Source: Planctomycetota bacterium (GTDB lineage: Bacteria; Planctomycetota; Phycisphaerae; Sedimentisphaerales; Anaerobacaceae). Taken from it: 35,925 nucleotides of DNA. Below are positions 26,711 to 34,135 of this stretch, in pieces (position 1 is the stretch's first letter; each line of letters starts with the position of its first letter). The translations under genes were made by a program, and so were the position numbers. The DNA is taken from positions 1 to 35,925 of the forward strand of contig JAAYVJ010000048.1 of NCBI GenBank assembly GCA_012517265.1, written 5' to 3'. The notes beneath the pieces are model-generated. The model was not told where the DNA came from. It saw only the letters and a program-made list of their open reading frames with translations, and ran no database searches.

Positions 26711-26739
26711 TCCACAAACCCATCCAATCTTAAACTGTG

Positions 26740-26816
26740 GAAGCGTTGAAGCGTAGAAGCGTGGAAGCGTCAGAACTCCACGCATCTACGCTTCCACGCT
26801 TCCACGCTTCTACGCG
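26740..26816. repeat. Inverted array of 8-bp tandem repeats (GAAGCGTN x4 / ACGCWTCY x4)
   Basis: AAGCGT at 26741, 26749, 26757, 26765; ACGC[AT]T at 26780, 26788, 26796, 26804; includes perfect 18-bp arms 26753-26770 and 26796-26813. Confidence 0.85.
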
Positions 26817-27574
26817 TCCACCTTCTCGAGCCGGCGATTGAAGAACTGCCGGACCATCGGATGCTCGCTCTTGTCGCGAAGATCCTTCGGGCGGCCGTCG
26901 GCGACGATCGTCTTGCTCTCCCGGTCCACCATGATCGCGCGGTCGGCCACCGCGAAGATGCTCGGCAACTCGTGCGTCACGATCACGAACGTGATGCCCA
27001 GACTCCGCGACAGTTCCAGGACCAGCTCGTCGAGCTGCGCCGACGTGATCGGGTCCAGGCCCGCCGAGGGCTCGTCGAGGAACAGGATCTTGGGATCCAG
27101 GGCCAGGGCCCGCGCGATGGCGGCCCGCTTTCGCATGCCGCCGCTGAGCTCGGACGGCATCTTATACGCCGCGGCCTGGAGTCCGACCGCCTTGAGCTTC
27201 ATCTGGGCGATCACCTCGATCGCCTCGCGGGGCAGATCCGTGAACTCCTCCAGCACCAGCGCGACGTTCGACAGGATGGTCATCGAGCCGAACAGGGCGC
27301 CGCTCTGATAGGCCACGCCGATCTTGCGGAGCACGTCGAGCCACTGTTGTCCCTGGGCGGTCACGATGTCCGTCCCGTCGATCACGATGCTCCCGCTCAG
27401 CGGCCTGTGCAGGCCGATCATGTGCTTGAGCAGCGTGCTCTTGCCCGACCCGGAGCCGCCGAGAATGGTGAGAATCTCCCCGGCCCGGACATCGAAGTTG
27501 ATGTCCTTGAGGATGACCGTGCTGCCGTACCCGACAGCGAGGTCTTTCACCTGGACAATGGGTTGATCCGCCAT
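26810..27574 (-). CDS. ABC transporter ATP-binding protein (MlaF-like)
   Basis: Walker A GGSGSGKSTLLKHM, signature LSGGMRKRAAIARALA, Walker B ILFLDEPSAGLDP. Confidence 0.92.
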   Translation of the reverse strand: MADQPIVQVKDLAVGYGSTVILKDINFDVRAGEILTILGGSGSGKSTLLKHMIGLHRPLSGSIVIDGTDIVTAQGQQWLDVLRKIGVAYQSGALFGSMTILSNVALVLEEFTDLPREAIEVIAQMKLKAVGLQAAAYKMPSELSGGMRKRAAIARALALDPKILFLDEPSAGLDPITSAQLDELVLELSRSLGITFVIVTHELPSIFAVADRAIMVDRESKTIVADGRPKDLRDKSEHPMVRQFFNRRLEKVDA

Positions 27575-28908: not shown

Positions 28909-30099
28909 ATGGTGGATGGTCGCGATCATACGATGGTGCGACGAGAGTTCCTGGGCAGGCTCGGAGCGATCTCGCTCGGAACGATGGCCGGCGCCGGCCT
29001 GGCCGCCGGACGCAGTGACGCCAGAGAGCGACAACCGGTCAAGGCATGGGAGCCGGTCTGCGAACGCAAGGTCCGCGTCGGCATCGTCGGCTACGGCGTG
29101 TGCAAATTCGGCGCGCAGTTCGGTTTCCAGGACCATCCGAACGTCGAGGTCGTCGCGGTCAGCGACTTGATCCCCGACCGGCGAAACGGCCTCATGGAGG
29201 CCTGCCGGTGCGGCAAGTCGTACGACTCGCTCGAAGAGCTGGTCAAAGACCCGAGGATCGAAGCGGTCTTCGTCGCCACCGACGCGCCCAGCCACGCCAG
29301 GCACTGCATGGAGGTCCTCAATCACGGCAAACACGTGATGACCGCGGTGCCAGCGGTGCTCGGCTCGCTCGAACAGGCCGAACAGCTTGTGGAGACCGTC
29401 CGAAAGACGGGCCTGAAGTACATGATGGCCGAGACGAGCTGCTTCCACGAGGATTGCTACGCCATGCGGAAGATCTACCACGCCGGCGGATTCGGCAAGC
29501 TCCTCTATTCCGAGGGCGAGTACTACCACTATTGCCCCACGCCGATCCCCTCCTATAAGGATTGGCGGGTCGGCCTGCCGCCGCTGTGGTATCCCACCCA
29601 CGCGACCGCCTATTACGTCGGCACCACCGGCAAGCGTTTCACCTCGGTCTCCTGCGCCGGCTCCAGCGCGGGCTTCGCCGCCTTCGCCCCGGGGGCCAAC
29701 AAGTACGACAACCCCTTCAGCGACGAAGTGGCCCTGTTCCAGACCAGCGAAGGCGGCTCGTCGCGGATGCTCATGTGCATGGGCGTGTACGGACTGGTCG
29801 ACGAGACCGGCCGGGTCTTCGGCGAGAAGGGCTATATGAACAAGATGGACTACCAGGGCACGATGAAGGACCTGCCCGACCTGGCGAGGCCCGCCCTGCC
29901 GCCATCCGTCGATGCTGGCGGTCACGGCGGATCGCACGGCCCCCTGATGAACGAGTTCGTCACGGCGATCCTCCAGGACCGCGAGCCGATGGTGAACGTC
30001 TACGAGGCCCTGGCGATGACCGTGCCCGGCATCATCGCGCACCAGTCGGCCCTCAAGGGCGGCGAAACCCTCAAGATCCCCCAGTTTGACAGAACATAA
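28909..30099 (+). CDS. Gfo/Idh/MocA family oxidoreductase with Tat-like signal
   Basis: RREFLGRLGAISLGTMAGAGLAAG; KVRVGIVGYGVCKFGAQFGFQDHPNVEVVAVSDL; start 28909 with GGAGG upstream. Confidence 0.85.
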   Translation: MVDGRDHTMVRREFLGRLGAISLGTMAGAGLAAGRSDARERQPVKAWEPVCERKVRVGIVGYGVCKFGAQFGFQDHPNVEVVAVSDLIPDRRNGLMEACRCGKSYDSLEELVKDPRIEAVFVATDAPSHARHCMEVLNHGKHVMTAVPAVLGSLEQAEQLVETVRKTGLKYMMAETSCFHEDCYAMRKIYHAGGFGKLLYSEGEYYHYCPTPIPSYKDWRVGLPPLWYPTHATAYYVGTTGKRFTSVSCAGSSAGFAAFAPGANKYDNPFSDEVALFQTSEGGSSRMLMCMGVYGLVDETGRVFGEKGYMNKMDYQGTMKDLPDLARPALPPSVDAGGHGGSHGPLMNEFVTAILQDREPMVNVYEALAMTVPGIIAHQSALKGGETLKIPQFDRT

Positions 30100-30133
30100 C
30101 GTCCTGCATGACTGTTGCTGAAAGTGGAGATTC

Positions 30134-30209
30134 ATTCTTCAAGGAAATCGTGAGACAGACTTCCTTGAAGAACAGGGGTCGAATACCCCTTCTGCACAAA
30201 TCCTGTTGA
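30134..30209 (+). repeat. REP-like palindromic module, solo copy
   Basis: TTCTTCAAGGAA/TTCCTTGAAGAA stem plus tail GGGTCGAATACCCC..CTGCA; similar to right half of the element at 31530-31707. Confidence 0.75.
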
Positions 30210-30218
30210 AAGCGTCCC

Positions 30219-31526
30219 ATGTACACGATCAAAGACATTCTGCGGATCCAGGTGGCCCCCGCTCTGGGCTGCACGGAGCCCGCGGCCGTCGCCCTGTGCA
30301 CCGCGGCGGCCCGAACCTTGCTGCCCGGCGGCGAGCCGGACTCCGTCGAATTGTGGCTGAGCCCCAACATCTACAAGAACGCCTTCGCCGTGGCGATCCC
30401 CGGCACCGGGGGCGCCAAAGGCATCGGCCTGGCCGGGGCGCTGGGGTTCTACGCCGGAGACCCTGCCAGAAAGCTGGAGGTCCTGGAGCCCGTCAACGAG
30501 GAATCGCTCGCCAGGGCCCAGGCGCTCGTGGCCGCCGGCAAGGTGGCGGTCAACCTGCTCGAAGGCCGCTCGGGGATCTACATCCGGTCCACGATCAGGG
30601 CCGGATCGAACGAAGCTGAAGCGGTCGTCGAAGGCACCCACGACAACCTCGTCGGCCTGCGAAGCAACGGCCAACCCGTCAAGGACCATCCCCTGCTCTC
30701 CGGCACCGTCGCCGACAAGAGCGAGACCGACCGGCTCGAGAGCTTCCTGTGCAGTCGGACGCTGGAGCAGTTGCTCGTGCTCGTCGAGGACATGGACGAC
30801 GAGGACCTCCGGTTCATCCGCCGGGGCGTGGAGTGCAACGTCAAGCTGGCCGAGCACGGATTGGCCTTCCACGACGGCCTGGGCGTCGGCGGCACCCTGG
30901 AACGCTTGACTCGAGAAGGGCTGACGTGCAGGGACATGGTCGCGGAGGCCCGCATCCTGACTTCGGCGGCCTCGGACGCGCGGATGGCCGGCGTGAAGCT
31001 GCCCGCGATGAGTTCGGCCGGCAGCGGCAATCACGGCCTGACCGCGGTCCTGCCGATCTGGGCGGTGCGGACCCACCTGCACCACCTCACGGACAAGAAC
31101 GTCCTCAAGGCGATCGGCCTGAGCCACGTCGTCACCGCGTACATCAAGGCCCACACGGGCCGGCTGTCCGCGGTCTGCGGCTGCTCGGTCGCCGCCGGGG
31201 CCGGCGCTGCCGCGGGCGTCGCCTACCTCATGGGAGGCAACCTGGCGCACATCGCCGGCGCGATCAAGAACCTCCTCAGCGACCTGGCGGGCGTGATCTG
31301 CGACGGGGCCAAGGCGAGCTGCTCGCTGAAGCTGGCGACCGCCGCGGGCGCCGCGGTGCAGGCGGCCCTGTTCTCGCTGCACGGCCTGGCGGTCGGCGAA
31401 CGCGACGGCATCGTCGCCTTGACGCCGGAGCAGACGACGCGAAATATGGGCCAGATCAGCACCAAGGGCATGATCGAGACCGACCGGACGATCCTCCAGA
31501 TCATGATCGACAAGCAGTTCAGCTAA
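30219..31526 (+). CDS. L-cysteine desulfidase / UPF0597 (CyuA-like) family
   Basis: IQVAPALGCTEPAAVALCTAAA, SPNIYKNAFAVAIPGT, CGCSVAAGAGAAAGVAYLMGG, GVICDGAKASCSLKLATA. Confidence 0.85.
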   Translation: MYTIKDILRIQVAPALGCTEPAAVALCTAAARTLLPGGEPDSVELWLSPNIYKNAFAVAIPGTGGAKGIGLAGALGFYAGDPARKLEVLEPVNEESLARAQALVAAGKVAVNLLEGRSGIYIRSTIRAGSNEAEAVVEGTHDNLVGLRSNGQPVKDHPLLSGTVADKSETDRLESFLCSRTLEQLLVLVEDMDDEDLRFIRRGVECNVKLAEHGLAFHDGLGVGGTLERLTREGLTCRDMVAEARILTSAASDARMAGVKLPAMSSAGSGNHGLTAVLPIWAVRTHLHHLTDKNVLKAIGLSHVVTAYIKAHTGRLSAVCGCSVAAGAGAAAGVAYLMGGNLAHIAGAIKNLLSDLAGVICDGAKASCSLKLATAAGAAVQAALFSLHGLAVGERDGIVALTPEQTTRNMGQISTKGMIETDRTILQIMIDKQFS

Positions 31527-31529
31527 GAG

Positions 31530-31707
31530 TTGGACTTCTGCAAAATGGGCATTCGACCTGCTTTCAGAGGGAAAAATCTGCTTCACGATTTTTCCCTCTG
31601 AAATCGTAACTCCCTGAAATGAAGCGATGAAGTCCATTCTTCACGGAAATCGTGAAGCAGATTTCCTTGAAGAATATAGGTCGAATGCCCATTTTGCAGA
31701 AGTCCAA
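31530..31707. mobile_element. MITE/BIME-like palindromic element with perfect 30-bp terminal inverted repeats
   Basis: 31530-31559 TTGGACTTCTGCAAAATGGGCATTCGACCT is the exact reverse complement of 31678-31707; two internal hairpins 31562-31603 and about 31634-31673. Confidence 0.75.
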
Positions 31708-31717
31708 TCAAGAGCAT

Positions 31718-34135
31718 TTACCGCGGCGACAAAGCAATCGTCGTGATTCCGCGAGGGCCGACCGTGAACGCGACTCGATCCTCGTTTGCCTCCAGAGGCT
31801 TCTGGGATCGTTCGAGCGCGTCGCACATTTCCGGCGCCGACCAGCCGGAAGGCGGCCGGAATGAACCGTCGGTCTCCCGGTCCAGGACGTTCCAGAATCG
31901 CAGAATCACGCGGCGGTTGTCCTGCGCGATCTTGAAGGCCAGCAGCGGCCCGCCGGGAAAGTCGATGTCCAGAGCCTCCAGGCCCGGCACTACGGGCGAT
32001 TGACCTCGCACATGCAAGAACGGCGGGACATCGAATCGCTGAGCCTCCTGGACCGCGACCAACGGATCGAACGGCTTGTCGAGCAACACGATGCGATAGC
32101 GGAACGTCCACTGCCGCTGGCCCCCCTGTCCGAACTGATGGTCGTTACGCGTGAGATTCATCATGGGCATGGAGGTCATGCACGCATCCTCGCGACCGAA
32201 CCGCCACAGGAGCGAATCCGGCGCAAGCACCAGCGCCGTTCGCCGCCGGTCGCTGGCGGCGGCGAATGTCACGCTCGCGTACAGTTCGGGATTGGCCCCA
32301 GGCAGATCATCCCCCCCGGCCTGCTTGGGACCGGCGGCCACAATCGCCCCCGGCGTATCATACCAATAGGCCGGCTTGTCCACCGCAAAGGGAAAAAGGA
32401 ATTCGACCGTTTGGGGATCGTCGGTCCATCCGTCGCGCAAATAGTAGCTGACATCGATCCAGGGATTTGTCTCGTGGAAAAGCCACTCGCTCCCCACCTG
32501 GAAGCCGGACCGGTCGAAGTCCGCCGCGATCCGCACGCCCAGATCGGTTCGAGAGCAACGCAGGCCCCGAAGCATCGTGGCCGCCGACGAAGGCAGAACC
32601 TCGGGAAAGACAGAATCCGGCTTGGCCTGGCCGCGATAGCGCGCGTGCACGAATTCGCCAAAACCGGGACTGCGATCCGCACCGACCCACGGTCTCCCTG
32701 CGGCGTCCGCCACGGACGCCACGCAGCACCGATTGGGGTCGAAGACGACGCGGCCGCCGCGCCAGGAGAACGTCGTCTCCTCGGGCCGGCCGTCCTTCAG
32801 AGGGACAGTCCGTTCAACAGGTTCAGGCTGTAGCGAGCGGGCGATATCCGCCGCCTCGGTGACTGCGTCGGCCCTCGTCCCAGCCGAGAGCGCCGCCCGC
32901 CGGCGGTCCGTGCCGCCGAAATCGTGCTCGGCGAATCGCAGCAGTTCCACGAACCCATGCCGAATCAGGTCGCGGTTCTTCGCTTCGCCGTGCCCTGCCA
33001 CGGTTCTGAGGGTCTCGCCCGCCTCGGCCAGTCTCAGCAGCCGCTCGGCCTGGCGGAACTGGGCGGTCAGTCCGGCCAGATGGGCCGCCCATTCCTCCCA
33101 ACAGATCCCGAACGTGCCTTCCATGACCGGGATCGTCAGGTTCTGCTCCCGGATCTCCTTTTCTGCGGCGGCGAAGAAGTCCTCGTACCTGGCGTCCACC
33201 AGTCGGATGGTCCCGTCGGACTCCGCGTTATACTTGCGGATGAAGAGCGAGAGATCTTCCGTCTGTGTCCAGTTGTCCCAGCCGGTGCCGAGCAGCAGGA
33301 TGCTCGATACGGGGTAGTTGGCGCCGTAGGCTTCGTAGCGTTCGACCGTGCGGCGGATGAACTCCTTGCGCCCGGCGAAGATCTCCGGGCTGTTGCGGTC
33401 GCCGAACGACTGAATCCGAAACGCGTCCCACTTCTCGCCGGCGACGTTCACCAGCGTGTGGCCCTCGGCGTATCCGCCCCAGCTCTCGGTGTCGCAATAG
33501 AGGTCCCATCGCATCAGGATTCGCTTGCCGTTCGGCGCCTGCCACCACACCAGGGGCAGCGGCTCCCGACGGCTCAGGTAGCTCTCCGCCCGCAGATTGT
33601 AGACGCCCCGCCCGAGGAAATCGAAGCCGCATTCGGTCAGGACGTTCGCCACGCCCCAGGGGATCGTGGCGTTCTCCATGACCAGCGCCGTGCGAGTCCG
33701 CACTCCCGTCGCCCGCTCGAGATCGGCCGACGCGAAAGTGGCTCGAATCGCGGTCTCGGTGTCGAGAATGCCCCACAGGAGCACGGCGTAGTTGCCCGCG
33801 CACCCGATGCGGCCGGCGCGAATCGCCCGATGGAGACGTTCGCTGCCGGCTTGGCCGCGATGCCGCCCATAGACCTCATTCCAGATCGTTCCGTCGAGAT
33901 TCCAGCGAGCCCGGTCCTGTTCCGCGAGGTCCAGGTAGTAATCCAGAAGCGGCGCCATCCGCAGCTCGATCTCCGTGGTCGAGCCGCACCAGCCGTAGTC
34001 GAGATGCTTGTCCTGGGCCAGATAGACGGTCCATCGCCTCCCGCCCTCCGCCCCCAGACAGGGGATCCAAGCGGTCAGGCATAGAAGCCACGCGAACAGG
34101 CAAGCCGATTCCCCGACGGGTTTCCTTCCAGGCAT
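31718..34135 (-). CDS. Secreted glycoside hydrolase family 38-like (alpha-mannosidase-type N-terminus, DUF5054-like)
   Basis: Signal peptide; YLAQDKHLDYGWCGSTTEIELRM..., MRWDLYCDTESWGGY; overall family assignment from recall. Confidence 0.6.
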   Translation of the reverse strand: MPGRKPVGESACLFAWLLCLTAWIPCLGAEGGRRWTVYLAQDKHLDYGWCGSTTEIELRMAPLLDYYLDLAEQDRARWNLDGTIWNEVYGRHRGQAGSERLHRAIRAGRIGCAGNYAVLLWGILDTETAIRATFASADLERATGVRTRTALVMENATIPWGVANVLTECGFDFLGRGVYNLRAESYLSRREPLPLVWWQAPNGKRILMRWDLYCDTESWGGYAEGHTLVNVAGEKWDAFRIQSFGDRNSPEIFAGRKEFIRRTVERYEAYGANYPVSSILLLGTGWDNWTQTEDLSLFIRKYNAESDGTIRLVDARYEDFFAAAEKEIREQNLTIPVMEGTFGICWEEWAAHLAGLTAQFRQAERLLRLAEAGETLRTVAGHGEAKNRDLIRHGFVELLRFAEHDFGGTDRRRAALSAGTRADAVTEAADIARSLQPEPVERTVPLKDGRPEETTFSWRGGRVVFDPNRCCVASVADAAGRPWVGADRSPGFGEFVHARYRGQAKPDSVFPEVLPSSAATMLRGLRCSRTDLGVRIAADFDRSGFQVGSEWLFHETNPWIDVSYYLRDGWTDDPQTVEFLFPFAVDKPAYWYDTPGAIVAAGPKQAGGDDLPGANPELYASVTFAAASDRRRTALVLAPDSLLWRFGREDACMTSMPMMNLTRNDHQFGQGGQRQWTFRYRIVLLDKPFDPLVAVQEAQRFDVPPFLHVRGQSPVVPGLEALDIDFPGGPLLAFKIAQDNRRVILRFWNVLDRETDGSFRPPSGWSAPEMCDALERSQKPLEANEDRVAFTVGPRGITTIALSPR

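What the first reader, a model, noticed from the sequence alone, without database searches (positions are those of the whole stretch)
30134..31707. Three copies of one REP-like module with covarying stems
Reading the left half of the element in reverse gives the same module as its right half and the solo copy at 30134-30209: variable stem, conserved loop core AATCGTGA(A/G).CAGA, then tail GGTCGAAT.CCC...TGCAGAAGTCC. Stems differ (TTTCAGAGGG/CCCTCTGAAA; ATTCTTCACGG/CCTTGAAGAAT; TTCTTCAAGG/CCTTGAAGAA) but stay paired, i.e. compensatory change. This indicates selection on structure, as in REP/BIME or IS200/IS605-end-derived elements; I do not recognise the family.
Basis: partly seen in the sequence, partly recalled or inferred. 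Interest (0 to 1): 0.7.

Follow-up and report, generated by a model that had tools for sequence, protein, structure and literature searches.

The report
Palindromic transposon invading planctomycete protein genes
The repeat is one copy of a small, hairpin-rich jumping DNA found so far only in one family of Phycisphaerae bacteria; most copies land between genes, but one branch has inserted itself in frame inside working enzyme genes and adds about 60 amino acids each time, a behaviour best known from Rickettsia.

Summary
31530-31707 is one 178-nt element: a 30-bp inverted repeat enclosing two hairpins whose loops are complementary. 30081-30204 is a decayed second copy. The genome has 14 full copies. 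All nine genomes searched in the genus carry it, as do a few other genera of the same family; other families sampled do not. Covariation is overwhelming: 34 of 56 pairs change on both sides, 0/500 shuffles match.

The REP/IS200-IS605 reading fails. Copies carry target-site duplications (24 of 99 perfect 7-mers, 0.5 expected). Relatives show the empty site at the window locus. Y1 transposase genes neither track the element nor carry its ends. G·T and A·C mismatches are equal (83:84), so pairing is maintained as DNA, not RNA. This is a non-autonomous, MITE-like palindromic transposon; its transposase was not found.

Unexpectedly, a subfamily sits in frame inside genes (purQ, NAD synthetase, RNase R, [FeFe]-hydrogenase, radical SAM, GH127, MTHFR-like; once in the window's own genome), adding about 58-61 residues. 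Seven relatives have purQ without it. This behaves like Rickettsia palindromic elements, in Planctomycetota.

The parts
31530..31707 (-). full-length palindromic element (178 nt; consensus orientation, hairpin A first, is the - strand)
   Evidence: (inverted repeats I1, I3, I4), (162 bits on -, 94 bits on +)
31530..31559 (+). outer terminal inverted repeat, left arm
   Evidence: I1: 30 nt, 100% complementary
31678..31707 (+). outer terminal inverted repeat, right arm
   Evidence: I1
31562..31603 (+). inner hairpin B; loop 31579-31586 TGCTTCAC
   Evidence: I4; covariation (helix 4)
31636..31675 (+). inner hairpin A; loop 31652-31659 GTGAAGCA, perfectly complementary to the loop of hairpin B
   Evidence: covariation (helix 3); loop-loop pairs
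31523..31529 (.). left target-site duplication CTAAGAG (includes the sdaA stop codon TAA)
   Evidence: sequence; family-wide TSD statistics
31708..31714 (.). right target-site duplication TCAAGAG (5 of 7 identical to the left)
   Evidence: sequence
   Evidence: 44 bits, E 7e-7; family D2
30219..31526 (+). flanking gene: serine dehydratase alpha-chain family (sdaA-like); the element starts 3 nt after its stop codon
   Evidence: PF03313; empty site in relatives
31718..34135 (-). flanking convergent gene: glycosyl hydrolase 38-like
   Evidence: PF17677 (PF01074 just below its cut-off)

Best explanation
A family of non-autonomous palindromic transposons (MITE-like). Each unit is about 175-179 nt: outer terminal inverted repeats (about 30 bp) enclose two hairpins of about 16 bp separated by a spacer of about 33 nt, so that either DNA strand can fold into the same three-way junction, possibly locked by loop-loop pairing. 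An enzyme supplied in trans, not identified, inserts units by staggered cutting and leaves 6-8 bp duplications in this genus (up to about 12 bp in a sister-genus subfamily). SHOWN: copies, structure, covariation, duplications, empty sites, DNA-level symmetry. INFERRED: trans mobilisation, and that structure is kept because only well-folding units propagate (or because one arm repairs the other during replication). Most subfamilies, including the window copy, sit between genes, where they are probably passengers. One subfamily is tolerated inside genes: one strand and frame is read through most often, two antisense frames less often, and the unit adds about 58-61 residues without breaking the reading frame. 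Out-of-frame insertions are presumably purged (inferred).
For: Copies: 14 full in the own genome; all 9 genomes of the genus and 3 others of 41 relatives; class survey 6 of 298, all in the same family. Covariation: 34/56 pairs with two-sided changes, 0/500 shuffles, slid controls far lower. DNA not RNA: 83 G-T against 84 A-C in-register mismatches over 99 copies. TSD: 24/99 perfect 7-mers against 0.5 expected; exact 10-12 bp duplications in G017 copies. Empty site: the sdaA/GH38 junction without the element in G003 and G004. In-frame insertion: purQ in G004 330 aa, 7 relatives without the insert; Pfam GATase_5 split in two; RNase R cold-shock domain split by an antisense-frame copy in G004, contiguous in G005, G000, G001 and G008; the own-genome copy (L016) and its G004 homologue (L189) carry it at different positions. 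The peptide shows no amino-acid constraint: codon-position differences (1:2:3) 3:4:4 and 10:7:13 in the insert against 47:24:135 and 104:65:256 in the hosts. Coding copies keep 97% Watson-Crick pairing.
Against: No autonomous partner or transposase was found, even in G007, which has young copies. TSD length varies with subfamily (6-12 bp), unusual for a single DDE transposase. TSDs are clear in a minority of copies; the window copy's matches at 5 of 7. The genomes are fragmented MAGs, so the autonomous element may simply be unassembled. No expression or protein data.
Confidence: 0.87

Rival explanations
1. REP/BIME-type or IS200/IS605-end-derived element mobilised by a Y1 (RAYT) transposase that recognises the single-stranded hairpins.
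For: Paired inverted hairpin modules resemble a BIME; hairpin B is followed by GTAG in many copies; Y1_Tnp genes exist in the genome; DNA-level structure fits ssDNA recognition; TIRs flanking Y1-type genes are described elsewhere (PMC3733652).
Against: Clear 6-12 bp target-site duplications; Y1 genes equally present in genomes without the element; no element or convincing TIR end at 22 Y1 loci.
Confidence: 0.06
2. A structured RNA (regulatory element or bidirectional terminator) transcribed from these loci.
For: Very stable predicted fold, about -100 kcal/mol; strong covariation; the window copy lies between convergent genes.
Against: G-T and A-C mismatches are equal, whereas G-U should dominate in an RNA (six tRNAs gave 5:0, a small control biased by the finder); no Rfam match; no terminator-like site; dispersed insertions with TSDs and empty sites.
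Confidence: 0.04
3. Compensation is mutational, not selective: one arm repairs the other by intrastrand template switching (quasi-palindrome correction) during replication, with no function for the fold. (Compatible with the transposon reading; a rival only for why the structure is kept.)
For: Symmetry of G-T and A-C mismatches; even the most similar pairs of copies have 36% of changed positions in compensated pairs, far above independent change; inserts are less diverged than host third codon positions.
Against: The share of compensated changes rises steadily with divergence to about 0.85, as selection at the level of propagation also predicts.
Confidence: 0.35

Closest known systems
Rickettsia palindromic elements (RPE) and Wolbachia protein-coding palindromes
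   Same: Short (RPE about 150 bp) palindromic repeats inserted in frame in unrelated housekeeping genes, adding tens of residues; also present outside ORFs (PMC10969869; PMC2996958).
   Different: Different phylum and, from its environmental MAG sources, probably free-living; no sequence relation was tested; here the insertion signature (TSD), empty sites in relatives and a two-hairpin-plus-TIR fold are demonstrated.
Bacterial MITEs (ERIC, NEMIS, RUP, YPAL, Nezha, Bcr1)
   Same: 70-300 bp with 15-30 bp TIRs, no transposase gene, often beside genes, stable fold (PMC3733652); TSDs are usual for MITEs (own knowledge).
   Different: No parent IS identified; near-perfect covarying internal hairpins in every subfamily; one subfamily specialised for coding sequence.
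REP/BIME and TIRYT-associated TIRs
   Same: Inverted pairs of palindromic modules in intergenic DNA; some Y1 genes are flanked by palindromic TIRs (PMC3733652).
   Different: Carries TSDs; no linkage to Y1 genes.
PARCEL palindromic coding repeats
   Same: Palindromic DNA that is read as protein (PMC2996958).
   Different: PARCELs are repeat arrays with an amphipathic protein pattern; these are single dispersed insertions of a neutral-looking peptide.

Membership tests
MITE | short (<600 bp) and not coding for a transposase | tested here: met
   175-214 nt units
MITE | terminal inverted repeats | tested here: met
   30-bp TIR; covarying outer stem in 14 copies
MITE | target-site duplication | tested here: met
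   24/99 perfect 7-mers against 0.5 expected
MITE | multiple dispersed copies with empty sites in relatives | tested here: met
MITE | related autonomous IS with the same ends (usual, not strictly defining) | tested here: inconclusive
   no pair of inward-facing ends at IS distance in G007; other genomes not searched this way, and MAG assemblies lose repeats
REP/IS200-IS605-derived (Y1-mobilised) | no target-site duplication | tested here: not met
   duplications present
REP/IS200-IS605-derived (Y1-mobilised) | flanks or accompanies a Y1/RAYT gene | tested here: not met
Rickettsia palindromic element-like (behaviour) | in-frame insertion in unrelated protein genes | tested here: met
Rickettsia palindromic element (membership) | homology to an RPE family | not tested
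   no RPE sequences were compared; no homology is claimed
structured RNA family | G-U greatly in excess of A-C at changed pairs | tested here: not met
   83:84

The most novel reading that the evidence does not exclude
An RPE-like protein-invading system outside Rickettsiales: one MITE family in Phycisphaerae has split into intergenic subfamilies and a coding subfamily whose preferred frame is kept open, so that it repeatedly installs a neutral loop of about 60 residues in essential enzymes. The same frame is also open in intergenic copies of another species, so the element may have been selected for tolerable translation.
Probability: 0.6. Interest if true: 0.85.

Novelty: new variant of a known kind. 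Interest (0 to 1): 0.72.

Why it matters
In-frame invasion of housekeeping genes by palindromic repeats is known mainly from obligate intracellular Rickettsia and Wolbachia; a 2024 review calls it only conceivable that other prokaryotes do the same (PMC10969869). Here it occurs in Planctomycetota, with a visible insertion signature, relatives that show the pre-insertion protein, and intergenic sister copies. How such inserts arise, survive and shape proteins thus becomes directly testable by comparing near-identical enzymes with and without the insert. The element also has near-perfect DNA-level covariation, which annotators could easily mistake for a structured RNA.

Tried and rejected
Rfam search of the window: nothing. 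Viral contigs: the hairpin A pattern is absent. Autonomous parent: end-pattern search of G007 gave only truncated or internally deleted copies, no transposase-bearing unit. Y1 linkage: none. RNA hypothesis: rejected by the G-T/A-C balance; my first tally of this double-counted the A-C class and was redone. Loop-loop kissing: complementarity exceeds shuffles but is partly explained by dyad ancestry, so it is left as possible. Home-made gene calling for orientation statistics was unreliable (it called the wrong strand for sdaA), so its orientation counts are not used; it did prompt the discovery of in-ORF copies, which were then verified independently. Terminator scan: none.

Full report
1. What is there. 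The window is one contig (G000:C522) of a 5.24-Mb, 766-contig MAG. Relatives carrying the same repeat are Phycisphaerae/Planctomycetota MAGs. At 31530-31707 lies one dyad-symmetric unit: a 30-bp perfect inverted repeat, two internal hairpins (31562-31603, 31636-31675) and a spacer of about 32 nt. The loops read TGCTTCAC and GTGAAGCA, exact complements.

2. Family and structure. BLAST and then a covariance model built from 14 oriented copies gave 14 full copies in the genome plus several remnants. Forty relatives plus the own genome: 12 of 41 carry it, namely all nine genomes of the genus and three of 16 other genera of the family; none of the 16 genomes from other families of the order do. A survey of 298 genomes of the class found it in 6, all in the same family (stricter filters). 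On the 14 copies, 34 of 56 pairs change on both sides, 91.2% of cells pair (81.8% after shuffling), 0/500 shuffles reach any of the five measures, and sliding the partner by one column drops pairing to 53-58%. Loop-loop pairs score above shuffles, more weakly.

3. DNA, not RNA. With symmetric scoring of in-register stems over 99 copies, mismatches were 83 G-T and 84 A-C. A transcribed structure should prefer G-U on one strand. Rfam and terminator scans were empty.

4. It moves. Flanks of copies share direct repeats: 24 of 99 copies have an identical 7-mer on both sides against 0.5 expected after shuffling partners (first seen). Duplications are 6-8 bp in this genus and 7-13 bp (many 9-12) in the G017/G021 group. 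The window locus is empty in two relatives, G003 and G004: the same convergent sdaA/GH38 pair with about 25 nt between the matches and no element. The window copy's own duplication, CTAAGAG/TCAAGAG, spans the sdaA stop codon. The divergence profile fits an element whose structure matters for spread: changed positions lie in compensated pairs in 36% of cases for the closest copies and about 85% for distant ones. Intrastrand repair of one arm by the other remains a serious alternative cause of the compensation.

5. Not a Y1 element. Three Y1_Tnp matches exist in the own genome, but 34 of 41 relatives have them irrespective of the element, and 22 Y1 loci carry no copy or convincing end. Together with the duplications this excludes REP/IS200-IS605 membership as usually defined. 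The transposase is unknown: a search of G007 for ends found only truncated or internally deleted copies.

6. The unexpected part. A subfamily with ends GGATCGGAAAAAGGC...GCCTTTTTCCGATCC lies inside long ORFs. The G004 genome (99% complete) has 41 matches to its translated peptide, many in open frames of 300 to 1760 codons; the window's own genome has one strong match, at C255. Hosts verified by Pfam with the insert inside a domain or between two domains: purQ (GATase_5 split), NAD synthetase (CN_hydrolase split), pdxB-like, PfkB/HAD fusion, GH127; [FeFe]-hydrogenase subunit, GH2, beta-helix/PDZ; radical SAM/SPASM, RNase R (CSD2 split), MTHFR-like fusion. Two cases are decisive. PurQ is 330 aa in G004; seven relatives match residues 1-112 and about 177-323 on adjacent DNA, i.e. 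61 residues inserted in frame in one species. RNase R of G004 carries an antisense-oriented, in-frame copy in the cold-shock domain that is absent in G005, G000, G001 and G008. L016 (own genome) and L189 (G004) are homologous proteins with the insert at different positions. The pdxB-like (G004/G005) and GH127 (G004/G003) insertions are shared between species at the same site, so they persist. Within these shared inserts, differences are spread evenly over codon positions, unlike the host genes: the peptide itself shows no amino-acid constraint in this small sample, while the DNA palindrome stays 97% paired.

7. Comparison. Behaviour matches Rickettsia palindromic elements and Wolbachia coding palindromes (PMC10969869; PMC2996958, which also cites an archaeal case); anatomy matches MITEs (PMC3733652). 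No paper found links planctomycetes to in-frame palindromic insertions, but only open-access texts were searched, and Ogata et al. 2002 could not be read. I therefore call it a new variant of a known kind: works like an RPE, built like a MITE, in a new phylum. No homology to RPEs is claimed.

8. Limits. MAG assemblies, no expression data, no transposase, and translation through the inserts is inferred from intact reading frames (for purQ, the only match in that genome; a second, uninterrupted RNB-family gene does exist in G004).

Noticed in passing
L188, L190, L192 (G004 host proteins): A second in-frame repeat peptide, EGEKV...VRPSDL.NFSPSSS, occurs in several host proteins, twice in L192: probably another coding palindrome family.
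   Followed up: no
L193, L197, L201; L186 and L243: Further recurrent in-frame peptides: GPAAPGWGKNTPEGGGAT and STGILPV..GQDAPAT.GRDAHAT, in unrelated proteins.
   Followed up: no
L131, L133, L134-L136 (loops) and L132 (stem): Small GC-rich or REP-like palindromes inserted in the loop or stem of this element's hairpins, as if extruded loops were insertion targets.
   Followed up: partly
L151-L164 (G007): One-armed and internally deleted mini versions (about 46-75 bp) of the element.
   Followed up: partly
window 26737-26821: A 34-bp inverted repeat made of short GTGGAAGCGT-like tandem units between two mla-type genes.
   Followed up: no
L161 near 3391 (G007:C210): A solitary element end lies next to a CRISPR-like repeat sequence.
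   Followed up: no
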